The notes under the pieces are model-generated. The model did no database searches. It was given only the letters and a program-made list of their open reading frames with translations, and was not told the DNA's origin. Shown here piece after piece: positions 180-12,826 of a DNA stretch of 16,212 nucleotides; position 1 is the stretch's first letter; the number at the start of each line of letters is the position of its first letter. Source of the DNA: Bacteroidota bacterium (GTDB taxonomy: Bacteria > Bacteroidota > Ignavibacteria > Ignavibacteriales > Ignavibacteriaceae). Location: positions 1 to 16,212 of the forward strand of contig JAJYOQ010000036.1 in the NCBI GenBank assembly GCA_021796135.1, in the 5' to 3' direction. A program made the translations under genes and the position numbers.

Positions 180-185
180 TATAAT
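180..185 (+). promoter_or_regulatory. candidate -10 element for the OmpP1/FadL-like gene
   Basis: A perfect TATAAT lies about 70 bases before the preferred start codon at 256. No convincing -35 hexamer is present at the usual distance. It overlaps the ATG at 184, which argues against that ATG being the start of translation. The call rests on one hexamer in AT-rich DNA, so it is tentative. Confidence 0.3.
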
Positions 186-255
186 GTACGGTATCTTACG
201 GAATAATTCTTCTCTACACAATAATCAAATCTATATTTTAAATAAAGGAATAGTT

Positions 256-1755
256 ATGAAAAAATCTTATGGAACTTTAGTTATAATGTTATTTATTTTT
301 TCCATGTCGTTATTTGCTCAATCCGGAACAAAGCTCGTCGGGTTTGATGCTAGAACTATGGGAAGGGGCGGTGTTGATATCGGTTTTTTTGATAATCCCG
401 ATTTAATGATGACCAATCCTGCGGGAATTTCTTTTCTATCTAATTCAATGTTAGATGCAAATTTTTCATTGATGGTGCCATCGCTTCATTTTCAAAATGC
501 TTTAAATAATAAAGACGGAAAGACAAATTATTTCCCCATGCCTGATATTTCATACGTATCAAGTGCTGATAATAATTTAACCTGGGGAATAGGACTTTTT
601 ACTCAAGGCGGAATGGGTTCTGATTTCACTTTAGATCATGCATTATTTGTTGATCAAAACGGAAATTATGTCCCTCAGACATATCATTCAAAATTAGCTG
701 TTATGCAAGGAGGACCTTCCGCATCTTATAAATTTACATCTTCCTTTTCAATTGGTATAACCGCTCAATTAGTATACAGTATGCTTGAGTTTCAGATGCC
801 CTATAGTCTTTCCCCTTCGGCTATGAAAGGCGTGATTCCACAAACGGGGGGAATGACATTCGGACAATTATTTGCTGCACCGCCATCACAGGGCGGATTC
901 GGATATCAAGAAGTTACGGCTGATGCAAACATGAATAATTTAACTGCAATTAGTTTTACAGGCAGAATAGGATTTGCTTATAAAGTTAATGATCAAATTT
1001 CTCTCGGATTAACATATTCACTTCCTACTTCACTGACTTACAAAAATGGTAAAGCTACTATGGATATGACTGCACAGCTAAATGATGCATTTGGAAAAGC
1101 TGTAATGGGCTATATGGCACAAAATCCAGGCGCAACTCAACAGCAAGCTCAAGGTGCAGTGATGACACAGTTTACAAACATGGGAATAAACTTACAAAAA
1201 GGCGCTATTGACAATTACAATCTGGAAGCAAAGTTGAAACTACCTCAATCATTAGGTTTCGGGCTTTCTTACAAGGCAACAGATTCATTTCGTGCCGGGT
1301 TTGATGTTGAATGGTATAATTGGCAAAATGCTTTTGACAATATGAGTCTAAATCTTTCCAATGGATCAAATCCGAATATAATGACAATGATGGGAAATAC
1401 CGGAAGTTTTTCAATTAATTTTCCAATGAATTGGAAAGATGTAATTCTGGTAAAAATCGGAGGAGAATATGATATAAACGAAGCACTTACAGTAAGGGCG
1501 GGATTTGCTTATGGAAACAATCCTGTTCCTTCCACCACAGTTTTCCCGGTATTCCCTGCAATTGTAGAAAACCATATTACAATCGGAGCAGGATATAAGT
1601 TGACTAATGCTTTTACTTTAAACGCGGCATATGAAATAGGTCTTAACAGTTCGGAGACAGCAAGTAATCCGAGTATTGTTGCAAACGAATACAACGGCAG
1701 CACAAGCCAGCTAGCAACAAATCTATTCCACATATCTCTCTCCTGGAATTTATAA
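256..1755 (+). CDS. OmpP1/FadL family outer-membrane channel protein
   Basis: A 499-residue protein of the OmpP1/FadL/TodX family: 14-stranded outer-membrane barrels that carry long-chain fatty acids or other hydrophobic compounds across the outer membrane. The start at 256 is preferred over the in-frame ATG at 184 because AAAGGAA sits just before it and it opens directly into a signal peptide (MKKSYG, a hydrophobic stretch, then F-A-Q at residues 20-22). The mature protein begins with the family's N-terminal hatch pattern: an A-R-T-M-G-R-G-G-V segment followed by N-P-A-G-I. The rest is rich in alternating polar and aromatic strands and ends in S-L-S-W-N-L, a typical aromatic barrel C-terminus. 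A Gln/Ala/Met-rich insert around residues 285-325 is probably a surface loop. It is a single gene with a terminator straight after it. The substrate cannot be told from sequence. Confidence 0.9.
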   Translation: MKKSYGTLVIMLFIFSMSLFAQSGTKLVGFDARTMGRGGVDIGFFDNPDLMMTNPAGISFLSNSMLDANFSLMVPSLHFQNALNNKDGKTNYFPMPDISYVSSADNNLTWGIGLFTQGGMGSDFTLDHALFVDQNGNYVPQTYHSKLAVMQGGPSASYKFTSSFSIGITAQLVYSMLEFQMPYSLSPSAMKGVIPQTGGMTFGQLFAAPPSQGGFGYQEVTADANMNNLTAISFTGRIGFAYKVNDQISLGLTYSLPTSLTYKNGKATMDMTAQLNDAFGKAVMGYMAQNPGATQQQAQGAVMTQFTNMGINLQKGAIDNYNLEAKLKLPQSLGFGLSYKATDSFRAGFDVEWYNWQNAFDNMSLNLSNGSNPNIMTMMGNTGSFSINFPMNWKDVILVKIGGEYDINEALTVRAGFAYGNNPVPSTTVFPVFPAIVENHITIGAGYKLTNAFTLNAAYEIGLNSSETASNPSIVANEYNGSTSQLATNLFHISLSWNL

Positions 1756-1930: not shown

Positions 1931-2617
1931 ATGGATTTGAAAATCAAGGATATTGTAACTCTACTAAACGTACCTGAGAAAACTGTTTATCAATGGATTA
2001 AGAAGAATGAAATTCCTTTTTATAAAATTAACCACCAATACAGATTCAGCCGTGCTGAAATTAATGAATGGATCTTAAAAACCCGGCAGGAGTTTTCCTC
2101 TTCATTAATCAATTTAATTAATAATGAAAATCAGACGACATTATCAGTACTAATAGAAAGAGGCGGAATAATAAACCTTGACTCCGGGGAAAGTGTTCCG
2201 GATATTTTGCGAAATGCTGTTGAAAGGATAAAGTTGCCGGAGAATTTAACAAAGGACGAATTATTGGGAGCATTACTTAACCGTGAAGAGTTAATGCCTA
2301 CTGCAATAGGGAGCGGCATTGCAATTCCTCATCCAAGAAATCCCATAGTGACCGACGGGAATAATTCGAGTGTTTCGATTTGTTATTTATCAAAGCCAAT
2401 CGAATTTGGAGCATTAGATAATCAACCTGTTCATACACTGTTTATTTTAATTACAGCTAATCCCCGTATGCATTTGGAAGCACTTTCTAAAATTTCATAT
2501 TTATGTCAAAATAATATTTTTTTAGAACTGTTAAAAAGGAAAGCTAAAAAGGAAGAAATTCTAACAAATGTTATTGCCATGGAGTCAGATTGGCGTAATA
2601 AAGGAATTAAGAATTAA
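1931..2617 (+). CDS. helix-turn-helix / PTS EIIA (PtsN-like) fusion protein
   Basis: A 228-residue two-domain protein. Residues 1-50 are an excisionase/MerR-type winged helix (HTH_17): D-I-V-T-L-L-N-V-P-E-K-T-V-Y-Q-W-I, then Y-R-F-S-R-A-E-I-N-E-W-I. Residues about 72-222 are a PTS fructose/nitrogen-type EIIA domain with the G-I-A-I-P-H-P-R motif, in which H134 is the predicted phospho-acceptor, and a second conserved histidine (H181) in R-M-H-L-E-A-L. Such proteins are most likely sensors or regulators that answer to PTS phosphorylation state and not sugar transporters, since no EIIB/EIIC is nearby. Its stop overlaps the next start (TAATG at 2615-2619), so it is co-translated with the complex. 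Inference: it controls the operon's expression or the complex itself according to carbon or energy state. No EI or HPr gene lies in this window. Confidence 0.85.
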   Translation: MDLKIKDIVTLLNVPEKTVYQWIKKNEIPFYKINHQYRFSRAEINEWILKTRQEFSSSLINLINNENQTTLSVLIERGGIINLDSGESVPDILRNAVERIKLPENLTKDELLGALLNREELMPTAIGSGIAIPHPRNPIVTDGNNSSVSICYLSKPIEFGALDNQPVHTLFILITANPRMHLEALSKISYLCQNNIFLELLKRKAKKEEILTNVIAMESDWRNKGIKN

Positions 2618-4599
2618 TGACAGCTATTTTAACTGGGATTATTTTATTCTTAACCGGCGGTGTTATTTCCATTTTCTTTCGTGATAAATTAAAAAAAATT
2701 GTTTTTATTTCTTTTGCTTTAGCTGCCCAATTTTTTTTACTTCCTCAATCATTTAATATTTTGTTAAGCGGAGGTCAAGCTGAAGCAAAATTTATTTTAT
2801 CCGACCCATTAGGTATATGTTCTTTTCGTTTAGACCCTTTAGCGAGTTTGTTTGTAATAATAATTTCTATAGGCTCTTTGTTGAGCGCGATATATTCCAG
2901 CAGCTATATGAAAATGTATGCTTCGAAAAAACTATCGCTTTCTTCTTTCTATTTCTTTTTTGGGATATTGTCTGTTTCAATGCTCCTTGTAGTGATAGCA
3001 CAAAACGCAATCGTGTTTTTGATTGTCTGGGAATTAATGTCAATCTCTTCTTTCTTTTTGGTTAGCTTTGAGAATGATAAATCTGAAGTCGTAAAATCGG
3101 GACTATATTATTTAATTTCTATGCAAGTAGGAGCTGCATTTTTAATAGCCGGATTCGCATGGGTTTCGGCGTCATCCGGCTCCCTTGATTTTAATTCATT
3201 CCGAAGCGTATTAAACAACTCTAATGGTTTTTCAAATTTAATTGTTGTTCTCTTCTTAATTGGTTTCGGAACAAAAGCCGGGTTCATACCTATGCACACA
3301 TGGTTACCCAAAGCACATCCTGCAGCTCCGACTGGTGTGTCAGCTTTAATGTCAGGAGTTATGATTAAAACAGGTATTTACGGAATACTGAGAGTTATTT
3401 TATTAAGCGGAAATATAAATTCGACTATTGCATACACATTTTTTTCAATAGCACTTCTAACAGCAATTACCGGCATAGCCAATGCGGCTTCGCAGAAAGA
3501 TTTGAAGAAATTATTAGCTTATTCAAGCGTAGAGAATATAGGTATTATCGGAATGGGTATAGGAATAGGAATGCTTGGTGTAGTATATAACAATTCAATA
3601 ATTGCCATGTTAGGATTTCTCGGAGCTTTACTTCATATAGTTAACCATTTTACTTTCAAGAGTATTTTATTTTACGGGGCAGGTATAGTTTATCTTAATA
3701 CACATACCAGAAATATTGATAAGTTAGGAGGATTACTAAAATATTTGCCTGTTACCTCGGTTTTGTTTTTAATCGGTTCACTTGCCATAAGCGGCTTGCC
3801 TATATTCAGCGGTTTCATAAGTGAATTACTAATTTATCTTGGGATAGCCAGAAGTCTTTCAATAAATAATTTGTCCATAAATATTTTTGCCATACTCGGG
3901 TTTTCGGGATTAGCTTTTACCGGGGCAATGGCGTTATTAAGTTTCACTAAAGCATACGGTATAGCTTTTTTAGGCAATCCCCGAACTCAGTATCAAGAAA
4001 AATTTAGGGAAAAAGATTTTTCGCTTCTTGCGCCGATGATATTTCTCGCTGTTATAATAATAATTACCGGATTGTTCCCATATCTGACTGTTTCGCTGCT
4101 TGTGAATATTTTAAAACAATTTTTACCAATTAATTCCATGAACGAATTTTCAAAAATTCAAATGAATCTAAAAATATTGTCGGGCTATATTTTAATTTTC
4201 ACTTCATTTATCTTATTCTTTTATTTTATAAGGTATCTTCTTTTAAAGAGAAAGCGAGTGGAATACTTTAAAACATGGGACTGCGGTTATCAAAAAGAAA
4301 GCAGCCGCATACAATATACAAGCAGTTCTTTTGCGCAGCCATTTTTAAGCCTGATTTCCGAGATTGTTCCACAAAAGATTAACGTAAACAAAGAGCCAGT
4401 TCTTTTCCCGAAAGAAGCTTCACTTGACAGTAATTCACAAGATTTCTTTGAACGATTTTTAATTCAGCCGAATTTAAAATGGTTGAGGAAATTCCTTGAC
4501 TTGTTTTCATGGATACAAAGCGGAAAAATGCAGCAGTATATAATTTATGGTTTAATCTTTTTGTTATTTATTCTAATATGGATTTTAGGAGTTAAATGA
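2617..4599 (+). CDS. hyfB: HyfB-like proton-pumping membrane subunit (Ehr complex)
   Basis: A 660-residue polytopic membrane protein of the NADH-quinone oxidoreductase/Mrp antiporter family, close in length to E. coli HyfB. Charged residues of the ion channel are present: E139 in V-W-E-L-M, K220 in F-G-T-K-A-G-F, K251 in V-M-I-K-T-G, H340, K348 in F-K-S, and K445 in S-F-T-K-A. The signature M-H-T-W-L-P-K-A-H-P-A-A-P-T lies at 226-239. After the core there is the HyfB/HycC-type C-terminal extension: T-W-D-C-G-Y at 553-558, then I-Q-Y-T-S-S-S-F-A-Q-P-F, and a final helix at about 640-658. It should form a distal ion-translocating unit of the membrane arm. It overlaps both neighbours (TAATG before, ATGA after), which indicates translational coupling. 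Confidence 0.92.
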   Translation: MTAILTGIILFLTGGVISIFFRDKLKKIVFISFALAAQFFLLPQSFNILLSGGQAEAKFILSDPLGICSFRLDPLASLFVIIISIGSLLSAIYSSSYMKMYASKKLSLSSFYFFFGILSVSMLLVVIAQNAIVFLIVWELMSISSFFLVSFENDKSEVVKSGLYYLISMQVGAAFLIAGFAWVSASSGSLDFNSFRSVLNNSNGFSNLIVVLFLIGFGTKAGFIPMHTWLPKAHPAAPTGVSALMSGVMIKTGIYGILRVILLSGNINSTIAYTFFSIALLTAITGIANAASQKDLKKLLAYSSVENIGIIGMGIGIGMLGVVYNNSIIAMLGFLGALLHIVNHFTFKSILFYGAGIVYLNTHTRNIDKLGGLLKYLPVTSVLFLIGSLAISGLPIFSGFISELLIYLGIARSLSINNLSINIFAILGFSGLAFTGAMALLSFTKAYGIAFLGNPRTQYQEKFREKDFSLLAPMIFLAVIIIITGLFPYLTVSLLVNILKQFLPINSMNEFSKIQMNLKILSGYILIFTSFILFFYFIRYLLLKRKRVEYFKTWDCGYQKESSRIQYTSSSFAQPFLSLISEIVPQKINVNKEPVLFPKEASLDSNSQDFFERFLIQPNLKWLRKFLDLFSWIQSGKMQQYIIYGLIFLLFILIWILGVK

Positions 4600-5537
4600 T
4601 GCTAAAGTATTTTATTATCGCTTTAGTTATAATATCTCCTTTCTTTTTTACCGGATTGATTAACAAAGTTAAGGCAATATGGGCAGGCAGAAAAGGCGCA
4701 CCCATTATACAACCATATTTTGATTTTGCCAGATTAATGCAAAAAGGCGAAGTAATAAGCAAAACCACATCATTTATATTCCAGATATCACCTTCAATAA
4801 ATATTGCTTCATCATTATTTGCGTTAATGCTAATTCCGCTTCCATTTCTTGGTTCGGTGATTAGTTTTAACGGAGATTTTATTTTATTTTCTTATACATT
4901 AGGTTTTTCAAAATTTATGATGACTCTGGCTGCTTTAGATACCGGCAGTAGTTTTGAAGGAATAGGCGCTAGCAGAGAAGTTACATATTCGACTATAGTT
5001 GAAACCGCTTTTTTTATTATAATGGGTTCTCTTGCATTATTAACGAATCAGATTTCATTCAGTTCAATTTTTGCCGTGTTAAATATGAGCACGGGTTATA
5101 CAATCCTTGTAAAAATATTACTGGTTATTTCTCTTTTCATAATGGTGTTATCCGAAGGAAGCCGTATTCCGATTGATGATCCTAATACACATCTTGAATT
5201 AACAATGATTCACGAAGTAATGATTTTAGATTATTCAGGAATAGATTTGGCATTTATATTATATTCTGCAGCTTTAAAAATGGTGATTATATCCATGCTG
5301 ATTGCCAATTTATTAGTTCCTTTATATTTAACATTGCCTATTGCTCTTATGCTTTTCACTTTTATTTTAATATTAATCTTTATGATAATAGGATTAGTCG
5401 AGTCTCTAATAGCCAGATTAAGAATTTCACATGTACCACAATTTATATTCTTCATGACAGCTTTCTCATTAATCGCATTTGCTATAATCGCCTTCTTTTT
5501 AAGAGCCGGAATACAATTTTCAGGGAAAGGTCTTTAA
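4596..5537 (+). CDS. hyfC: HyfC/HycD-like membrane subunit (NuoH family)
   Basis: A 313-residue membrane protein homologous to NuoH and HyfC/HycD, which anchors the peripheral arm to the membrane arm. Conserved cytoplasmic loops are visible: K-A-I-W-A-G-R-K-G-A-P and Q-P-Y-F-D-F-A-R-L (residues 27-47), then K-G-E-V-I-S; G-S-S-F-E-G-I-G-A-S-R-E-V (117-129); and E-G-S-R-I-P-I-D-D-P-N-T-H-L-E-L-T-M-I-H-E (187-207), the acidic loop characteristic of the hydrogenase branch. About eight hydrophobic segments are present. The start at 4596 overlaps the hyfB-like stop by four bases, and its own stop overlaps the next start (TAATG at 5535-5539). The ATG at 4599 is a possible alternative start. In complex I this subunit lines the entry to the quinone chamber and couples redox work to the pumps. 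Confidence 0.92.
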   Translation: MMLKYFIIALVIISPFFFTGLINKVKAIWAGRKGAPIIQPYFDFARLMQKGEVISKTTSFIFQISPSINIASSLFALMLIPLPFLGSVISFNGDFILFSYTLGFSKFMMTLAALDTGSSFEGIGASREVTYSTIVETAFFIIMGSLALLTNQISFSSIFAVLNMSTGYTILVKILLVISLFIMVLSEGSRIPIDDPNTHLELTMIHEVMILDYSGIDLAFILYSAALKMVIISMLIANLLVPLYLTLPIALMLFTFILILIFMIIGLVESLIARLRISHVPQFIFFMTAFSLIAFAIIAFFLRAGIQFSGKGL

Positions 5538-6172
5538 TGTCCGATATATTAATAATTTTATTAGGTACAACAATTTTATACATTTTTGCTGCAAGCCGAA
5601 TTGAAGCTTATGTTAAAGCACTAGCGCTGCAGGGGACTATACTTTTTTTATTGATTTTAGTTGATGTAAAAGATATTACCTGGCTGAATTTTGCTTTTCT
5701 GATTTTAGAAACCTTAATTATTAAAGGAATTATTATTCCATACTTTTTACTTTCTGTAATCAGGAAAAATGAAATCGGCAGAGAAGTCGAACCTTTCATT
5801 TCACAATTTTATTCTGTTCTAATAGCGAGCATAATTTTTATGTTTGGATTTGTTGCAGCCTTTTGGGCTGCTAAAACAAATGCCGGCATTAAGCCGCTTT
5901 ATTTCGGAGTATCAATAATACTTATTGTCGCTAGTTTATTTTTAATAATTAACCGAAAAAGAATCATCACGCACATTTTATGTTATATGATTTTGGAAAA
6001 CGGAATTTTTCTACTTTCACTTTCAGTTGCTAATGAAATGCCGATGCTTGTAAATGTAGGAGTGCTTCTTGATTTATTTGTAGGAATATATTTATTCGTT
6101 ATCTTCTTTAATAAAATTCAGGAGATGTATGACGGTAATCATATTGATACATTAACGGAATTGAAAGATTAA
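5537..6172 (+). CDS. hyfE: HyfE-like membrane subunit (NuoK-related)
   Basis: A 211-residue, almost wholly hydrophobic protein with six or seven membrane segments, of the hydrogenase-4 component E family. Diagnostic pieces are R-I-E-A-Y-V-K-A-L-A-L-Q-G (21-33), E-T-L-I-I-K-G-I-I-I-P (58-68, with intramembrane E58 and K63), and Y-M-I-L-E-N-G-I-F-L-L (150-160), where E154 corresponds to the proton-pathway glutamate of NuoK. D179 lies in a further helix. HyfE joins the HyfC-like anchor to the antiporter-like subunits and continues the line of charged residues through the membrane. It overlaps the previous gene by one base and is followed after two bases by the next start. It is weakly conserved in general, so the call also leans on gene order. 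Confidence 0.88.
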   Translation: MSDILIILLGTTILYIFAASRIEAYVKALALQGTILFLLILVDVKDITWLNFAFLILETLIIKGIIIPYFLLSVIRKNEIGREVEPFISQFYSVLIASIIFMFGFVAAFWAAKTNAGIKPLYFGVSIILIVASLFLIINRKRIITHILCYMILENGIFLLSLSVANEMPMLVNVGVLLDLFVGIYLFVIFFNKIQEMYDGNHIDTLTELKD

Positions 6173-6174
6173 CG

Positions 6175-7605
6175 ATGATAACGATAATACTTTTTTTACC
6201 CATCATTTTAGGAACCCTTAGTCTTATAATAAAGAAGTCATACTTCAACAGAATAGCATTATTCGGATCAGTACTTGTTTACGCTTTAGCTGCAATTGCA
6301 GTCTGGTCGAATTTTGAATGGTATATTTTGCCGGATTGGTTAATTTTATATTTTAAATTTGATAAACTCGGACTGTATTTTTTTACCGTGATGACATTAG
6401 TTTTTGCGAGCGTTGCAGTTTACAGTTTATTTTATTTTGAAGCGCATCAATTAACCGAGAAGCAAGAATCTGTTTATACTGCCGAAATACTTTTTTTCAT
6501 TGTTGCAATGTCGGGAGTGATATTATCCACTCATTTAGCATTGCTATGGGTATTTATTGAAGCGACAACATTAACAAGTGCATTATTAATATATTTTGAG
6601 AAGAAAAAATCTTCATTAGAGGCAACCTGGAAATATGTTTATATATGTTCCGTGGGAATAGCATTAGCTTTTGTAGGAATTATTCTCCTATCAATCGGAA
6701 GCAGGAGTATAAATTCGCTTTTCTTTTCTGATTTATATGCGAAGGCAAATGAAATAAATCCTTTCTGGCTTAAAATATCATTTGCATTTATTTTTGTCGG
6801 ATTCGGAACAAAAATAGGAATAGCCCCAATTCACGCATGGCTTCCAGATGCGCATTCGGAAGCTCCCTCGCCGGTATCTGCATTACTTTCGGGAGCGCTG
6901 CTGAACTCTGCTTTACTGGGTTTACTCCGAATCCATGAAATATTTATTAAAGCGAACTCACAAGTTTTTTCTAATTCTCTTTTTCTACTTACGGGATTTC
7001 TTTCCTTAGTCGTAACATCAGTCTTTATGCTTCGATTAAAAAATTATAAACGTATGCTGGCATATTCCTCAATAGAAAATATGGGGATTTTATTCATCGG
7101 AATATCTCTCGGTACTTTAGGATTTTTTGCAGTAATGATACATTTACTTGCTCATTCACTATCAAAATCGTCTTTATTTCTGACCTCAGGAAATATTCTT
7201 CATTTAAATAAGAGTAAAAAAATCGAAGATGTTAAAGGACTGTTAAAAAGAGACCCGCGCACCGGATGGCTTTGGATTGTTTCCATGCTGGCAATTATAG
7301 GATTGCCGCCTTTCCCAATATTTTTAAGCAAATTTCTTATCATAAGAGCCTTGTGGTTATCCGGTATGGGCTGGCTTATAATTCCGCTTTTCATATTGCT
7401 AATAATTATAACTTTTGGAATGAGCAGTGCAGTTTTTAAAATGTCCTTCGGTGAACCCCTAAACGGAGAGAAGGAAATCATAAAATTAAGTTTGACAGCT
7501 TATTCACCCCAAATAATTTTATTATTATTACTTTTAATTATCGGAATTGATATGCCGCAGCAAGTTCTTACTCTCATTAACAATGCCGCAGGTTTCTTTC
7601 ATTAA
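6175..7605 (+). CDS. hyfF: HyfF-like antiporter subunit
   Basis: A 476-residue polytopic protein of the NuoL/M/N antiporter superfamily, HyfF branch. The key residues are E129 in F-I-E-A-T-T-L-T-S-A, K213 in F-G-T-K-I-G-I-A-P-I-H-A-W-L-P, H223-D-equivalents in P-D-A-H-S-E-A-P-S-P-V-S-A-L-L-S-G, H323 and H327, and K331 in L-S-K-S-S-L. As in other HyfF proteins, an asparagine (N244, L-L-N-S-A-L) stands where NuoL-type subunits have a lysine. The length is close to E. coli HyfF (about 525) with a shorter C-terminus. It is the second pump-like subunit here. The third one of hydrogenase-4 (HyfD) is absent. The next gene starts one base after the stop. Confidence 0.9.
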   Translation: MITIILFLPIILGTLSLIIKKSYFNRIALFGSVLVYALAAIAVWSNFEWYILPDWLILYFKFDKLGLYFFTVMTLVFASVAVYSLFYFEAHQLTEKQESVYTAEILFFIVAMSGVILSTHLALLWVFIEATTLTSALLIYFEKKKSSLEATWKYVYICSVGIALAFVGIILLSIGSRSINSLFFSDLYAKANEINPFWLKISFAFIFVGFGTKIGIAPIHAWLPDAHSEAPSPVSALLSGALLNSALLGLLRIHEIFIKANSQVFSNSLFLLTGFLSLVVTSVFMLRLKNYKRMLAYSSIENMGILFIGISLGTLGFFAVMIHLLAHSLSKSSLFLTSGNILHLNKSKKIEDVKGLLKRDPRTGWLWIVSMLAIIGLPPFPIFLSKFLIIRALWLSGMGWLIIPLFILLIIITFGMSSAVFKMSFGEPLNGEKEIIKLSLTAYSPQIILLLLLLIIGIDMPQQVLTLINNAAGFFH

Positions 7606-7606
7606 A

Positions 7607-9106
7607 ATGGAAAAGCGATTGAAATATATTGAGATAAAAAACCTTCAGACCGTTTCATTGCACGATATACCTGTGTTACAAATGGAGGAATTAAGAACTG
7701 AATTAATTTTTAATATTAAAAGCGGAAAAAGGTTAGTCCAATTTTTTGGTAATAAAATTAATGAAGAAGTCATTCTCTATGTAATTATAGCTGATGACAT
7801 TGCATCAAAATTATTGATTACTTCGACAATATTTAAGTCAGAAAACTCCTATAACTCTATCACAACAGAAATTCCTTCGGCACATTTATTTGAAAGGGAA
7901 TTTTTTGAACAATACGGAATAAAGCCGGAAGGTCATCCATGGCTCAAGCCCGTCAGAAAAGGAATCGCCGGAATTAACAGTGCCGAACAGCAATATGATT
8001 TTTTTAGTATTACAGGAGAAGATGTTCACGAGGTTGGAGTAGGTCCAATCCATGCAGGGATAATTGAGCCGGGTCATTTTAGATTTTCCTGTCACGGAGA
8101 AAAAATTTATCATTTGGAAATTAAACTCGGATTTCAGCATCGGGGCATTGAAGATTTGTTTATTAAAAATAATACTCGTCCCATTTATCTTCAAAAGCTA
8201 TCCGAATCGATAGCCGGAGATACAGTGATAGGTCATGCAGGTACATTTATACGGGCTATAGAATCATTAAGCAGCGTTTCGATTTCAAAACGAGCTAAGT
8301 CAATTCGCACGATTGCACTTGAACTAGAAAGAGTTGCCATACACCTCGGGGATTTATCAGCGCTTTCGAATGATATAGGATATTTAACCGGCAATTCTGT
8401 ATTCGGCGCTTTGCGCACAAAAATTATTAATACGACGATGTCTATTTGCGGAAATAGATTCGGTAGAAATTTAATTACAATGGGCGGAGTTAATTTTGAT
8501 TTATCGGTTGATCTGACCGGGAAAATAATATCAACGATTAATCAATTGACAGACGAAGTTACACTTGCATCGGAGGTATTATTCTCATCTTCATCTGTTA
8601 TTTCAAGATTTGAAAAAACCGGAACAATTAAAAAAGAAACCGCTCTTGAAATCGGAATGGTAGGTCCGGCTGCAAGAGCATGCGGAATGGCGATAGATGT
8701 GCGTTCCGATCATCCATTCGGAGTTTACGAAAATTTTCCCGTGCACAAATTAACATTAAATACAGGAGATGTTTTTGCACGTGCATATATCCGTTTTATT
8801 GAAATTCAGCAATCAATAAAAATAATTCTGGAACTATTAAATAATTTACCAAACGGGGAGATAAAAAATACAAAATCTTCTATTGAGCCGGATACTCTTG
8901 TTGTTTCATTAACAGAAGGATGGCGGGGAGAAATAGCACATGTAGTAATTTCGGATAAAAACGGAAAAATCAGCCGGGTTAAGATTAAAGATCCCTCGTT
9001 TAATAATTGGTTTGCTTTATCTCTTGCAGTCAGAAACGAAGGAATATCGGATTTTCCTCTATGCAATAAAAGTTTTAATCTTTCATATAGCGGTTTCGAC
9101 TTATAG
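7607..9106 (+). CDS. hyfG: HyfG-like large subunit (NuoC-NuoD fusion) lacking all Ni-Fe cysteine ligands
   Basis: A 499-residue fused NuoC/NuoD-type protein. The ATG at 7607 is chosen over one at 7547, which would run 59 bases into the previous gene. Residues 1-130 are NuoC-like, with the F-E-R-E-F-F-E-Q-Y-G-I ... G-H-P-W-L-K-P-V-R motif. Residues 140-499 are NuoD/HyfG-like (V-G-P-I-H-A-G-I-I-E-P-G-H-F; L-G-F-Q-H-R-G-I-E). In catalytic HyfG/HycE proteins two C-x2-C pairs hold Ni and Fe. Here the first (V-C-G-I-C-G) reads I-A-G-D-T-V, giving A203 and T206. The second (D-P-C-F-S-C) reads N-L-S-Y-S-G, giving S493 and G496. The scaffold around both sites, including D-P-S-F-N-N-W and D-F-P-L, is intact, so this is a clean loss of the metal site and not decay. 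The protein fits the energy-converting hydrogenase-related (Ehr) class. No hydrogenase maturation gene is present in the window, and no C-terminal processing tail is present in the protein. Confidence 0.93.
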   Translation: MEKRLKYIEIKNLQTVSLHDIPVLQMEELRTELIFNIKSGKRLVQFFGNKINEEVILYVIIADDIASKLLITSTIFKSENSYNSITTEIPSAHLFEREFFEQYGIKPEGHPWLKPVRKGIAGINSAEQQYDFFSITGEDVHEVGVGPIHAGIIEPGHFRFSCHGEKIYHLEIKLGFQHRGIEDLFIKNNTRPIYLQKLSESIAGDTVIGHAGTFIRAIESLSSVSISKRAKSIRTIALELERVAIHLGDLSALSNDIGYLTGNSVFGALRTKIINTTMSICGNRFGRNLITMGGVNFDLSVDLTGKIISTINQLTDEVTLASEVLFSSSSVISRFEKTGTIKKETALEIGMVGPAARACGMAIDVRSDHPFGVYENFPVHKLTLNTGDVFARAYIRFIEIQQSIKIILELLNNLPNGEIKNTKSSIEPDTLVVSLTEGWRGEIAHVVISDKNGKISRVKIKDPSFNNWFALSLAVRNEGISDFPLCNKSFNLSYSGFDL

Positions 9107-9115
9107 AATTTAATA

Positions 9116-9118
9116 AGG
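9116..9118 (+). promoter_or_regulatory. ribosome binding site of the ferredoxin-HyfI gene
   Basis: AAGG/AGG at 9115-9118 lies six bases before the ATG at 9125. This is the only gene of the Ehr operon separated from its neighbour by a real gap (18 bases), so it does not depend on stop/start overlap and carries its own Shine-Dalgarno sequence. Confidence 0.55.
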
Positions 9119-9124
9119 TAAAAG

Positions 9125-9886
9125 ATGTTCGATTTATTAAAGTTACGAAAAAGACATGGATATCAGGCAATACCGGATATTAGAGCAGCTTCCCCTGTTC
9201 CAACACATCCAGGTTTCCCGGTTTTAGATGCAACAAAATGCACAGAGGACTGCATTCCCTGCAAAGATATTTGTCCAACCGGTGCAATTAAAGTTGACCC
9301 ACTTTCCATAGACCTTGGTAAATGTATTTTTTGCGGAGAATGTGAACGAGTTTGCAAAAACGGCGCAATTAAATTTTCCAATGAATATAAATTAGGAAGC
9401 ACAGAAAGAGAGCGCTTAATTATTTCTTCAGGTATGGCATTTGAGAATTTTAAACAAACCGCTATTGAATCAAAAAAGGAAATACATAAATTATTCGGTC
9501 GTTCTTTAAAGCTAAGGCAAGTTTCAGCTGGAGGCTGTAATGGTTGTGAGATGGAATTAGCCGCTTGCAGCAACGTAAATTTTGATATGGGAAGATACGG
9601 AATTGATTTTGTTGCTTCGCCCCGACATGCAGATGGTATTGTAATAACAGGAGCAATTTCAAAAAATATGGTACCTGCTTTAATGGATGCATATAAAAGC
9701 ATCAGCGAGCCAAAAATAGTAATTGCAGTAGGGGCTTGTGCAATAAGCGGAGGAGTTTTCGCAGAGTCAGAAGAGCTTAACCGCAGTATTTTCGATAAAA
9801 TTAAAGTTGATTTGTTTATTCCCGGCTGTCCGCCTCATCCATTGGTATTTATAAATTCTTTAATTGATTTTCTAGGCAGGAAATAA
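9125..9886 (+). CDS. hyfI: ferredoxin-HyfI (NuoB-like) fusion, small Fe-S subunit of the Ehr complex
   Basis: A 253-residue protein joining two modules. Residues 30-85 are a two-cluster ferredoxin domain: C39-x3-C43-x2-C46-x3-C50-P and C67-x2-C70-x2-C73-x3-C77. The first motif has three residues between its first two cysteines where the usual pattern has two. Residues 125-253 are the NuoB/HyfI fold with the N2-type cluster ligands C138 and C141 (G-G-C-N-G-C-E), C205 (V-G-A-C-A-I-S-G-G) and C235 (P-G-C-P-P-H-P). In E. coli these modules are separate proteins (HyfH and HyfI). The fusion should form a complete electron wire from a soluble donor to the site beside the HyfG-like subunit. It is the last gene of the operon, and the next gene converges on it only 10 bases downstream, with no hairpin terminator between them. 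Confidence 0.92.
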   Translation: MFDLLKLRKRHGYQAIPDIRAASPVPTHPGFPVLDATKCTEDCIPCKDICPTGAIKVDPLSIDLGKCIFCGECERVCKNGAIKFSNEYKLGSTERERLIISSGMAFENFKQTAIESKKEIHKLFGRSLKLRQVSAGGCNGCEMELAACSNVNFDMGRYGIDFVASPRHADGIVITGAISKNMVPALMDAYKSISEPKIVIAVGACAISGGVFAESEELNRSIFDKIKVDLFIPGCPPHPLVFINSLIDFLGRK

Positions 9887-11006: not shown

Positions 11007-11681
11007 TTAACCTTCAATTCTTGTATTGAATTCAATAGCATATTTAAGCAACTCAGATAATGATTCTAGATTCAGTTTGTCTGCCATATGCTTTCTATGA
11101 GTATCAACCGTTTTGATACTTATAAATAATTTTTCTGCAATGTCAGCACTGGTATTTCCTTTACCGATTAATTTTAATATTTCTATTTCTCTTCTTGTAA
11201 AATTGAACTTTGATTTATCGGAATTAGTTTTAAATATAGAATCAAATTTGAAAAATATTTCACTTAATTGTTCATCATTTAATTCTTTACCAAAATATTG
11301 ATGACCAGCAAAGATATGCCTAATGGCATATACAAGCTCTTCTTCCATTATATTTTTATTAACTAAACCCATTCCCCCGGATAATAGGCATGAATAAATA
11401 AATTCCTCGGAATCATACATAGACAAAAACAATATTTTTGCTTTACTATCTTTTATTCTAATTTTTTTGGCTGCATCAATTCCGGAGAGCACCGGCATTG
11501 AGATGTCAACTAAGGCAATATCCGGTCTATTTTCAAAATATTTTTCAAAAAGTTCTTCTCCATTTTCGGCTTCATTTATAATTAGAATATCAGAATAATC
11601 CGATAACATTTTGATGATTCCCGCTCTAAATAGTTTATGATCATCAGCAATCAGAATATTAATTAAATTAGAATCGTTCAT
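11007..11681 (-). CDS. NarL/FixJ-type response regulator
   Basis: A 224-residue response regulator. The receiver domain (about 6-125) has the acidic pair D13-D14, the phosphorylated aspartate D59 in L-V-D-I-S-M-P, S87 as the switch Ser/Thr position, and the conserved lysine K109. The LuxR/GerE-type DNA-binding domain (about 159-222) has F-T-R-R-E-I-E-I-L-K-L-I-G-K-G, then A-E-K-L-F-I-S-I-K-T-V-D-T-H-R-K-H. Its start overlaps the kinase stop by four bases (ATGA at 11681-11678), so it is the kinase's cognate partner. Likely targets are the inverted repeats upstream of this operon and possibly the neighbouring genes, but that is inference. Confidence 0.94.
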   Translation of the reverse strand: MNDSNLINILIADDHKLFRAGIIKMLSDYSDILIINEAENGEELFEKYFENRPDIALVDISMPVLSGIDAAKKIRIKDSKAKILFLSMYDSEEFIYSCLLSGGMGLVNKNIMEEELVYAIRHIFAGHQYFGKELNDEQLSEIFFKFDSIFKTNSDKSKFNFTRREIEILKLIGKGNTSADIAEKLFISIKTVDTHRKHMADKLNLESLSELLKYAIEFNTRIEG

Positions 11682-12826
11682 TTTATTTCTTTTATTGGAA
11701 TATTAATATTTAAATAAGTTCCTTTATTATTATTTTGTCCGATCTTAAAGGTACCGCCAAAGCTTTTTACTCTTTCCTGAATATTCAATAACCCGAATCC
11801 ATTATGTCCTTTATTGTTATTTGATATGCCTATCCCATCATCCGAGATATTTATTTTTATTTTCCCATCCGAATCATCTAGCTGAACCATAAATGTACTA
11901 GCATTTGAATGCTTTATAATATTGTTTAATGCCTCTTGAATGATTCTATAAATAGATAATTCCAACTTTTTGTCTAACCTTTGTTCAAATCCTAAAATAT
12001 TTAAGCTGCCTTGGAATGTACTTTCTTCAGAAATCTTTTTAATTAAAGAAGCTAATGTCGGACCTAGTCCCATTTCCTCCAGAATTGAGGGTTTAAGACC
12101 ATATATTATGTTTTTTAATTCAGAAATAGTACTATCGAATAAGTCTAACGAATTTTGAAAACCATTATTCATTTCAGGTTCAAGAGATTTTTTTTTATTA
12201 TAGTTAATAAAGTTCATTCTCAATAACAAAAGATTTTGTCCGATTCCATCATGTAATTCCCTGGCAATACGCTGACGTTCTTCCTCAATTAAGTTTTGTA
12301 AATTAATTGACAAACCTATAAGCTTATTCTCATATTCAACCTTATCGGTAATATCATGAAAATAAGCTTGTGCAATTTGAAGTGAAGATATTCCCCTAAA
12401 TAATACAGAATAATACTTGTAATTATTTATAAAAATAAGGTTTTCTGATTTGTTTTGATTTATATATTCTTTAACAGAAAAATTGATATCAGGTATTATT
12501 TCAGAAATATGTTTTCCTTCCAGCACATTTTCCTTAATCAATTGTTTAGCTGAGCCATTAGAAAATATAATCTTCCCATTATAATCGGTTCTAATTACCG
12601 GATCCGGATCCAGCTCTGCAAACAGAGCCATAAGTCTAGAATTTTTAAGTTCTAATGCATGTGTTTCAAGTAAATATTTTTTCCGGAGTGGAAATATGAT
12701 GTAATTGAAGATTAGAATTAAGAGAATAAAAAGTATAACTATGAAAAGAATAGAATAATAGATAGGATCATCGGGTCTGGCTAATAAATGTAAATATTCA
12801 TGAAGTTCTTTAGATAAACCATTCAT
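11678..12826 (-). CDS. PAS-containing HisKA_3 sensor histidine kinase
   Basis: A 382-residue kinase of the NarX/DegS/LiaS type. It has one membrane helix (about 22-46), a PAS domain (about 63-162, with L-D-P-D-P-V-I-R-T-D-Y-N-G-K-I-I-F-S-N and ending A-Y-F-H-D-I-T), and then the HisKA_3 dimerisation helix with the phosphorylated H192 in R-I-A-R-E-L-H-D-G-I-G-Q. The ATPase domain shows the N-box E-A-L-N-N-I-I-K-H-S-N-A (298-309), G1 D-D-G-I-G (329-333) and G2 G-F-G-L-L-N (343-348). With only about 20 residues before the helix there is no periplasmic sensor, so sensing is probably by the cytoplasmic PAS domain or a membrane partner. No haem or flavin ligand in the PAS domain is evident. It lies 15 bases after the 84-residue gene. 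Confidence 0.93.
   Translation of the reverse strand: MNGLSKELHEYLHLLARPDDPIYYSILFIVILFILLILIFNYIIFPLRKKYLLETHALELKNSRLMALFAELDPDPVIRTDYNGKIIFSNGSAKQLIKENVLEGKHISEIIPDINFSVKEYINQNKSENLIFINNYKYYSVLFRGISSLQIAQAYFHDITDKVEYENKLIGLSINLQNLIEEERQRIARELHDGIGQNLLLLRMNFINYNKKKSLEPEMNNGFQNSLDLFDSTISELKNIIYGLKPSILEEMGLGPTLASLIKKISEESTFQGSLNILGFEQRLDKKLELSIYRIIQEALNNIIKHSNASTFMVQLDDSDGKIKINISDDGIGISNNNKGHNGFGLLNIQERVKSFGGTFKIGQNNNKGTYLNINIPIKEIK

What the first reader, a model, noticed from the sequence alone, without database searches (positions are those of the whole stretch)
7607..9106. Hydrogenase-4-like complex whose catalytic subunit has lost all four Ni-Fe ligands (Ehr-type)
Seen: the two cysteine pairs that define a Ni-Fe hydrogenase large subunit are replaced by A203/T206 and S493/G496, while the residues on both sides stay recognisable and the gene is intact. 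Known: complexes of this kind, called energy-converting hydrogenase-related (Ehr), have been described as links between complex I and group 4 hydrogenases, and their reaction is unsolved. Inference: this operon encodes an ion pump driven by an unknown redox couple (ferredoxin, quinone or another partner). It is the best candidate here for an undescribed system.
Basis: partly seen in the sequence, partly recalled or inferred. Interest (0 to 1): 0.82.

Follow-up and report, generated by a model that had tools for sequence, protein, structure and literature searches.

The report
Hydrogenase-like ion pump without metal site
This bacterial operon encodes a membrane machine built like a hydrogen-making enzyme whose metal-binding residues have been replaced by a different, strictly kept motif; such "Ehr" complexes are already known, but what drives them is not settled, and some relatives appear to lack any electron path to the old active site.

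Summary
In detail: the 499-aa large subunit (7607-9106) has A203/T206 and S493/G496 where NiFe hydrogenases have two CxxC pairs. It is not decay: a kept motif, G-D-[S/T] plus NKS-x3-SYxGxDL-stop, stands there in relatives from many phyla, with no maturation tail. The protein belongs to the known Ehr family, sister to formate-hydrogenlyase large subunits, so it is a new member of a known kind, not an undescribed system. The pocket keeps the hydrogenase proton relay (E154, H246, R357, E399, R440) but lacks the quinone His/Tyr (I153, G204); 29 of 49 Ehr genomes have neither MenD nor MqnA/D over cut-off. The window's small subunit keeps all 12 cluster cysteines, so ferredoxin-type electron input is plausible here. 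The operon starts with a helix-turn-helix/PTS-EIIA gene found there in several phyla. And elsewhere in the family the proximal [4Fe-4S] ligands have been lost more than once, replaced mostly by acid or polar residues (DCDN, TDES, DEDS), while most of the pump residues checked stay. Electron delivery to the old pocket therefore cannot be universal in Ehr.

The parts
1931..2617 (+). HTH_17 + PTS EIIA_2 protein (228 aa), first gene of the operon; phospho-acceptor-type His134 in IPHP (that this His is the phosphorylated one is recalled, from EIIA family knowledge)
   Evidence: Pfam PF12728 and PF00359. Same gene directly before HyfB in 24 of the 80 loci; P133-H134 in 26 of 26 aligned operon copies, window included.
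2617..4599 (+). HyfB-like antiporter subunit (660 aa)
   Evidence: PF00361, best NCBIfam model hydrogenase 4 subunit B, below its cut-off. E139, K220, K297, K348 kept in all 24 rows compared and K251 in 22 of 24 (N in two); a few rows are the same gene from overlapping loci.
4596..5537 (+). HyfC/NuoH-like membrane anchor (313 aa) with E-channel acids
   Evidence: PF00146; E128, E136, E187, D194, E201, E207, E269 kept in all 25 rows compared; positions 121, 195 and 212 vary.
5537..6172 (+). HyfE/NuoK-like membrane subunit (211 aa)
   Evidence: Only NCBIfam match 'hydrogenase 4 membrane subunit' (below its cut-off); PF00420 below its cut-off.
6175..7605 (+). HyfF-like antiporter subunit (476 aa)
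   Evidence: PF00361, hydrogenase 4 subunit F models, below their cut-offs. E129, K213, K292, K331 kept in the rows except L116 (three of four differ) and a cut-off row of L026.
7607..9106 (+). EhrL: HyfG/HycE-like large subunit (NuoC+NuoD-like domains, 499 aa) without Ni-Fe ligands
   Evidence: predicted fold pLDDT 88.6, best PDB match HycE 7z0s_E.
8063..8068 (+). I153-E154: quinone-His position is Ile; hydrogenase proton-relay Glu kept
   Evidence: I153 and E154 in 30 of 30 and in 82 of 82 Ehr rows.
8213..8224 (+). A203-G204-D205-T206 in place of the N-terminal CxxC
   Evidence: Alignment to HycE C241-C244.
9065..9103 (+). N487-K488-S489-...-S493-Y494-S495-G496-F497-D498-L499-stop in place of DPCxxC plus maturation tail
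   Evidence: N487, K488, S489, G496, D498, L499 invariant in the 30 rows of A1; no C-terminal extension in 82 rows.
9125..9886 (+). EhrS: fused 2x[4Fe-4S] ferredoxin domain + NuoB/HycG-like domain (253 aa); proximal ligands C138, C141, C205, C235
   Evidence: PF00037 + PF01058; MbhJ/HycG-type CxxC spacing; all 8 Fer4 and 4 proximal Cys present.

Best explanation
The operon encodes an Ehr complex: an ion-translocating relative of formate hydrogenlyase. Shown by sequence: the Ni-Fe ligands are absent, no maturation tail exists, the ligand sets for three [4Fe-4S] clusters in the window's small subunit are complete, the hydrogenase-type proton relay into the old pocket is kept, and the membrane-arm pump residues are kept. 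Inferred: a low-potential donor (ferredoxin, or a formate dehydrogenase encoded elsewhere) reduces the small subunit. Electrons and protons reach the metal-free pocket and reduce a small acceptor other than quinone, held by the rebuilt GDT/NKSxxxSYxGxDL site. The change of charge and of the flexible beta1-beta2 loop drives H+ (or Na+) export through HyfC-E-F-B. The HTH-EIIA leader protein probably tunes expression to the phosphorylation state of the PTS. The acceptor is not identified.
For: Ligand loss and new motif. Ehr clade of 30 rows, SH-aLRT 100. Proton-relay residues E154, H246, E399, R440 in 30 of 30 and R357 in 28 of 30 Ehr rows; their roles are taken from passages of the E. coli FHL structure paper PMC9474812. 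The quinone-head residues of complex I (Nqo4 H38, Y87; PMC7684303 passages) are I153 and G204 in 30 of 30, against H and Y in 15 of 15 NuoD rows. Menaquinone markers: MenD over cut-off in 7 of 49 genomes and MqnA/D in 13 of 49, none in both, so 29 of 49 have neither; no UbiA-type match in 5 of 49. HypD in only 15 of 49, so Ni-Fe maturation is not required. Pump residues kept, exceptions in parts. HTH-EIIA: of the 49 genomes, 23 with the gene all have HPr, 18 without it have none, 8 undecidable; 9 of 10 further EIIA genomes have HPr.
Against: No donor or acceptor gene was recognised in the operon or among the other genes of the window that were scanned. The close relative G001 has MenD, so quinone is probably available there. 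Several relatives have lost the proximal cluster or ferredoxin-domain cysteines, which does not fit a purely electron-driven pump across the family. The EIIA/HPr contrast rests mostly on one lineage (Melainabacteria), and HPr also occurs in genomes whose Ehr operon shows no EIIA gene (G058, G105, G102, G194). Genomes are mostly MAGs of unstated completeness; ubiquinone-specific genes were not searched; 40 of 49 genomes have below-cut-off MenD-model matches, which I take for other ThDP enzymes. The pocket loops 148-154 and 495-499 have pLDDT under 50.
Confidence: 0.5

Rival explanations
1. Redox-independent Ehr: the complex moves ions without electrons reaching the old pocket. The pocket binds a ligand (for instance a small anion such as formate or bicarbonate) or only protons, and the clusters are structural, regulatory or vestigial.
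For: The full set of four proximal Cys is missing in 52 of 121 rows of A3 and 75 of 118 rows of A4, with repeated patterns (DCDN/DTDN, TDES/TAED, DEDS); each set includes the window, and both searches were seeded with ligand-less queries, so these are not family frequencies. Parsimony needs 8 state changes on the small-subunit tree, 3 forced by starred branches. Ligand-less subunits sit beside Ehr large subunits: L150 with the motif intact, L045 with GDS and SCCGNDL, L114 with GGEP and SYAGCDL. HyfB and HyfF pump residues are kept in L150 and L114, and HyfF in L045, whose HyfB is not on the contig. Anion transporters lie by some Ehr operons: a formate/nitrite-transporter-like gene upstream in 16 of 80 loci (one of the 16 verified as PF01226), SulP in L151 and a SulP-STAS-EIIA fusion inside the operon of L157.
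Against: The window and its nearest kin keep all proximal ligands: 76 of 78 rows have CCCC, L045 has none, and L065 is cut off by its contig end. No ligand-driven version of a complex I-type pump is known to me. Ligand-less lineages may have changed function.
Confidence: 0.22
2. Ferredoxin:quinone oxidoreductase, complex I-like: the old Ni-Fe pocket has become a quinone site.
For: Close solved folds include complex I subunits; G001 has MenD and NuoD-type subunits.
Against: Both quinone-head residues are replaced by invariant Ile and Gly; proximal cluster has hydrogenase CxxC spacing, not CC; 29 of 49 Ehr genomes lack both menaquinone markers and 5 lack UbiA; the clade lies with FHL, not NuoD.
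Confidence: 0.18
3. Formate-linked Ehr: a formate dehydrogenase feeds electrons into the complex, which makes it a formate-driven pump.
For: Sister to FHL large subunits. E. coli hyf is followed by focB and 16 of 80 Ehr loci have an FNT-like gene upstream. In Geobacter sulfurreducens Ehr subunits were more abundant with formate than in the hydrogen-containing conditions (PMC7894505 passages), and an FDH-Ehr complex was proposed by others (PMC6349859 passages).
Against: No formate dehydrogenase or FNT gene was seen in this window; the FNT-like gene was seen only in loci titled Melainabacteria/Gastranaerophilales or unnamed ones like them.
Confidence: 0.15
4. MBS-like polysulfide reductase at an open-coordinated proximal cluster.
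For: MBS also lost Ni-Fe ligands (PMC7684303 passages).
Against: MBS lacks the MbhL E21 equivalent and has a shortened motif leaving a three-Cys cluster. Here E154 is invariant and the small subunit aligns without gaps to MbhJ and HycG through the CxxC.
Confidence: 0.05
5. Dead or decaying hydrogenase.
For: Loss of all four ligands.
Against: Full-length genes, new invariant motif over many phyla, conserved operon.
Confidence: 0.02

Closest known systems
Ehr complexes (energy-converting hydrogenase-related; Melainabacteria/Margulisbacteria, Geobacter, comammox Nitrospira, ammonia-oxidising archaea)
   Same: Group 4-like large subunit without the Ni-Fe-binding residues, antiporter-like membrane arm, unknown reaction (passages of PMC6349859, PMC7894505, PMC10284858, PMC10432482). 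PMC6349859 names Melainabacteria, Lentisphaerae and Spirochetes as carriers, groups that turned up as this window's relatives. PMC3569383 (passages) says the cysteines are absent 'in most cases' and present in one Desulfotomaculum EhrL, so the name is used more widely there.
   Different: The passages seen do not describe the HTH-EIIA gene, the fused small subunit, the GD[S/T]...SYxGxDL signature or loss of proximal ligands. I did not compare sequences with Geobacter GSU0739-45 or any sequence named Ehr in those papers.
E. coli formate hydrogenlyase / hydrogenase-4 (HycE, HyfG; 7z0s)
   Same: Sister clade; best fold match, TM 0.86 by query length; same gene kinds B-C-E-F-G-I as hyf; same proton-relay residues.
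   Different: FHL-type subunits have the Ni-Fe ligands and a C-terminal extension; hyf also has hyfD and separate hyfA and hyfH.
Complex I (NuoD/Nqo4)
   Same: Common fold, same kind of membrane arm.
   Different: Window lacks quinone His/Tyr and the adjacent-Cys motif; different side of the tree.
MBS of Pyrococcus furiosus (6u8y)
   Same: Ni-Fe site lost, ferredoxin-fed arm.
   Different: MBS keeps two Cys (C85, C385 of MbsL), lacks the relay Glu and has a three-Cys cluster (PMC7684303 passages).

Membership tests
Ehr complex | Group 4/complex I-type large subunit without the four Ni-Fe cysteines | tested here: met
Ehr complex | Large subunit falls in one clade with other Ehr-L, apart from hydrogenases and NuoD | tested here: met
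   30 rows, SH-aLRT 100; includes Melainabacteria, Spirochaetes and Lentisphaeria rows, groups named as Ehr carriers in PMC6349859. Sequences called Ehr in papers were not fetched as such.
Ehr complex | Antiporter-like membrane subunits in the same operon | tested here: met
   HyfB, C, E, F at 2617-7605.
Group 4 [NiFe] hydrogenase | Two CxxC pairs binding Ni-Fe | tested here: not met
Group 4 [NiFe] hydrogenase | C-terminal tail for maturation protease | tested here: not met
   No residue beyond L499 in any of 82 rows (two rows are cut short of it); HycE and HyfG go on.
Complex I-like quinone oxidoreductase | Quinone-head His and Tyr in the D subunit | tested here: not met
   I153 and G204, 30 of 30 Ehr rows.
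Complex I-like quinone oxidoreductase | Quinone reduction activity | not testable with these tools
   Needs protein.
MBS polysulfide reductase | Three-Cys proximal cluster with shortened loop; no relay Glu | tested here: not met
   Four Cys with hydrogenase spacing; E154 present.
PTS-linked operon | EIIA His and HPr in the same genome | tested here: inconclusive
   His134 in 26 of 26 copies; HPr in 32 of 33 genomes with the gene. The window's genome is not held and phosphorylation was not tested.

The most novel reading that the evidence does not exclude
Ehr is a family in which a complex I-type pump has been uncoupled stepwise from redox chemistry: first the Ni-Fe site went, then in several lineages the proximal [4Fe-4S] cluster was exchanged for an acid/polar site. 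The rebuilt large-subunit pocket would then work as a ligand- or proton-driven (perhaps anion- or formate-gated) switch of ion translocation, under PTS control in the window's branch, and not as an oxidoreductase.
Probability: 0.22. Interest if true: 0.88.

Novelty: new member of a known kind. Interest (0 to 1): 0.6.

Why it matters
What Ehr complexes do is an open question in bioenergetics in the papers seen, and relatives turn up in gut Melainabacteria, soil Proteobacteria plasmids, Thermaceae and Ignavibacteria. The residue table here separates the models: hydrogenase (excluded), quinone reductase (disfavoured), redox-driven versus redox-free pump. Natural variants that lack the proximal ligands while keeping the rest are a ready-made experiment on whether a complex I-type pump can run without electrons reaching its active-site pocket. 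The EIIA leader gene gives a testable link between sugar or PEP status and membrane energisation.

Tried and rejected
Tried and rejected: (1) a true hydrogenase with shifted cysteines: no CxxC in the protein; lone Cys203 and Cys495 occur in many relatives but not here. I asked whether Cys203 and Cys495 go together as a pair; they occur in all four combinations, so no pair is claimed. (2) A second hydrogenase large subunit pairing with this membrane arm: none in G001. G011 and G013 do have separate CxxC group 4 subunits (L093, L094), and several PF00346 places of other genomes were not read, so this is not excluded for all Ehr genomes. (3) A conserved downstream partner gene in the Ignavibacteria branch: the only recurrent one (6 loci, a long secreted-looking protein at varying distances) did not look like a partner; the larger recurrent families were in Melainabacteria-type loci. 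(4) The 542-aa gene between HyfF and HyfG in L022 matches FAD-dependent amine oxidoreductases and lies on the other strand; seen once, not used. (5) HPr as a perfect predictor of the EIIA gene: spoiled by G058, G105, G102 and G194 (HPr present, no EIIA gene seen at Ehr) and G178 (EIIA present, HPr not found). (6) Literature: searches, whose listings are capped; search 80 mostly returned Ehrlichia papers and 95 returned none. No listed title or abstract start was on PTS-EIIA with Ehr or on proximal-ligand loss in Ehr; this covers open-access PMC only. Recalled, not seen: Coppi 2005, Marreiros 2013.

Weak points and dropped rows: 49 of 80 loci were given to the genome searches (short contigs and near-duplicates left out by me), and completeness is not stated. 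The large-subunit tree is a quick search without bootstraps; 30 Ehr rows were chosen by me from the 80 loci and 7 plasmid loci. The small-subunit tree has 128 columns for 265 rows, few supported forks, and long branches that meet. The two small-subunit searches were seeded with ligand-less proteins (L045, L114) and list only the best 120 of 6062 and of 2651; from these I left out P0122 (same as L045) and P0296, P0317, P0320, P0334 (no contig given). In the class sample, where all matches were counted whatever their strength (query P0241, itself ligand-less), 1 of 26 Ehr-type small subunits was ligand-less. L116 breaks the HyfF residue pattern.

Full report
What is there. Window 1931-9886 (+) holds seven tightly packed genes: HTH_17-EIIA (1931-2617), HyfB (2617-4599), HyfC (4596-5537), HyfE (5537-6172), HyfF (6175-7605), the large subunit (7607-9106) and a small subunit with a fused ferredoxin domain (9125-9886). 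Neighbouring stops and starts overlap or lie within about 20 bases. The gene before it is an OmpP1/FadL-type porin (184-1755); among the 80 loci a match was found only in L001, though many loci are too short to show it. After the operon come four ORFs of at least 90 aa on the other strand.

The observation. The large subunit matches MbhL, HycE and Nqo4. HycE C241, C244, C531 and C534 fall on A203, T206, S493 and G496. The protein has no CxxC and stops at L499, where HycE and HyfG go on.

Not erosion but a rebuilt site. Among 82 rows (window plus 81 ORFs from the 80 loci), G204 and D205 are invariant, 206 is S or T in 81, and S493, G496 and D498 are invariant in the 80 rows that reach them. In a wider set of 30, down to 31% identity and including Variovorax, Allomeiothermus, Paraburkholderia, Rhodococcus, Rhizobium and Methylocalor plasmid copies, N487, K488, S489, G496, D498 and L499 are invariant. 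One row (L114) has GGEP for GDT, one (L115) has N for S493 and one (L045) has C for Y494. In four class relatives (G062, G102, G175, G194) the end reads GNDR, and in two more distant plasmid copies the ending differs (L161, L162).

Pocket chemistry. Using residue roles from passages of PMC9474812 and PMC7684303, each Ehr row was read at the mapped columns. The hydrogenase relay Glu is E154 in 30 of 30. H246, E399 and the canopy Arg R440 are kept in 30 of 30, and R357 is R in 28 and K in 2. (In the 82-row set H246 is Q in two and R357 is K in six.) The complex I quinone His and Tyr are I153 and G204 in 30 of 30, against H and Y in 15 of 15 NuoD rows. The canopy Asp is Asn in 25 and Asp in 5. 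So the site has neither metal ligands nor the quinone pair, yet it keeps the proton gear.

Tree. With 50 rows, the 30 Ehr rows form one clade (SH-aLRT 100) beside HycE/HyfG; the branch that parts these 32 rows from NuoD (15 rows, 100), Ech-like and MbhL rows has 95. On this tree the ligands were lost separately in Ehr and NuoD. It is a quick, unrooted tree. The predicted structure (pLDDT 88.6, pTM 0.91) matches HycE best (TM 0.86), but the pocket loops 148-154 and 495-499 are poorly predicted.

Genome tests (genomes of 49 of the 80 loci). HypD occurs in 15 of 49, so Ehr does not travel with Ni-Fe maturation. MenD is over its cut-off in 7 and MqnA/D in 13, in different genomes; 29 have neither. 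UbiA-type matches are missing in 5. Most are MAGs, and ubiquinone-specific genes were not searched. The nearest genome, G001, does have HypD, MenD, a NuoD and two NuoD-like subunits, but no CxxC group 4 large subunit among its four PF00346 loci.

Electron path. The window's small subunit has all eight ferredoxin-domain cysteines and the four proximal ones (C138, C141, C205, C235) in hydrogenase spacing. In relatives the ferredoxin domain is often reduced: 8 of 78 rows have only four cysteines there. Five of the seven plasmid copies read (L115-L119) have a short small subunit with no ferredoxin domain.

The proximal cluster is not sacred. L045 has N, D, S, D at the four proximal positions, and the Allomeiothermus plasmid copy L114 has none of the four cysteines. 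Searches seeded with these two gave, among the rows aligned, 52 of 121 and 75 of 118 without the full set, in repeated patterns: DCDN/DTDN, TDES/TAED, DEDS. Named sources among them include Meiothermus, Thermus, Calidithermus, Gaiellaceae and Lutibacter. Parsimony needs 8 changes, at least 3 on supported branches. In a class sample, 26 of 197 genomes had an Ehr-type small subunit (25 seen beside an Ehr large subunit) and 1 of the 26 (G058) was ligand-less. Its operon (L150) has the large-subunit motif GDT...SYCGHDL, and the membrane residues checked are kept. A Mycobacterium branderi plasmid shows a ligand-less small subunit beside a more distant large subunit. Hence an ion pump driven by an unknown redox couple may hold for the window but cannot be the rule for all Ehr.

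The leader gene. HTH-EIIA precedes HyfB in loci titled Ignavibacteria/Bacteroidetes, Caldithrix, Spirochaetes, Omnitrophota, Lentisphaeria and FCPU426, with the PTS histidine in 26 of 26 copies. Of the 49 genomes, 23 have it (all with HPr), 18 lack it (none with HPr; titled Melainabacteria, Gastranaerophilales or Cyanobacteria, or unnamed), and 8 loci are cut too short to tell. Of ten further EIIA operons, nine genomes have HPr. G058, G105, G102 and G194 have HPr but no EIIA gene seen at Ehr. HTH-EIIA-like genes sit between HyfB and HyfC in L153 and L154 (domain scores just under the Pfam cut-offs; in L154 only the HTH matched), and a SulP-STAS-EIIA fusion sits between large and small subunit in L157. 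PTS input into Ehr may therefore have been placed in the operon more than once.

Transport neighbours. An FNT-like gene lies divergently upstream in 16 of 80 loci, none titled other than Melainabacteria/Gastranaerophilales or unnamed bacterium (one verified as PF01226). SulP lies downstream of Ehr in L151. E. coli hyf has focB. This hints at formate or other small anions but was not seen in the window.

Verdict. An Ehr complex, a new member of a known kind. Most likely a ferredoxin-type, proton-coupled ion pump with an unknown non-quinone acceptor. The most interesting opening is the recurrent loss of the last cluster elsewhere in the family.

Noticed in passing
window 1931-2617; same gene in 24 of the 80 loci: HTH_17 + PTS EIIA gene heads the Ehr operon in several phyla and was not seen in Melainabacteria-type loci, whose genomes also gave no HPr match.
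   Followed up: yes
L150:11110-11868, L045:4292-5050, L114:12275-13147, L161:9001-9795: Ehr-type small subunits with acid or polar residues at the four proximal [4Fe-4S] ligand positions; repeated in many database proteins (alignments A3, A4).
   Followed up: yes
L157:6939-9140 (+): SulP + STAS + PTS EIIA fusion protein between the Ehr large and small subunit genes.
   Followed up: partly
L151:4611-6371 (-) and 13540-17289 (+): SulP gene directly downstream of an Ehr operon, and kdpA plus a P-type ATPase gene divergent from it.
   Followed up: partly
L032, L033, L035, L038, L040, L043, L046, L047, L051, L052, L055, L058, L059, L069, L074, L078: Formate/nitrite-transporter-like gene divergently upstream of the Ehr operon in these 16 loci (family verified by Pfam in L035 only).
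   Followed up: partly
L159 (G013), L160 (G012); also L024, L026: Two complete or near-complete Ehr operons in tandem, each with its own HTH-EIIA gene.
   Followed up: no
L036:5754-7073: Small subunit frame with an unrelated stretch of nearly 200 residues inside the ferredoxin domain.
   Followed up: no
window 184-1755: OmpP1/FadL-type outer membrane protein directly upstream; a match was found only in L001 among the 80 loci.
   Followed up: no
window 11007-12826 (-): LuxR-type response regulator and HisKA_3 sensor kinase pair on the opposite strand downstream.
   Followed up: no
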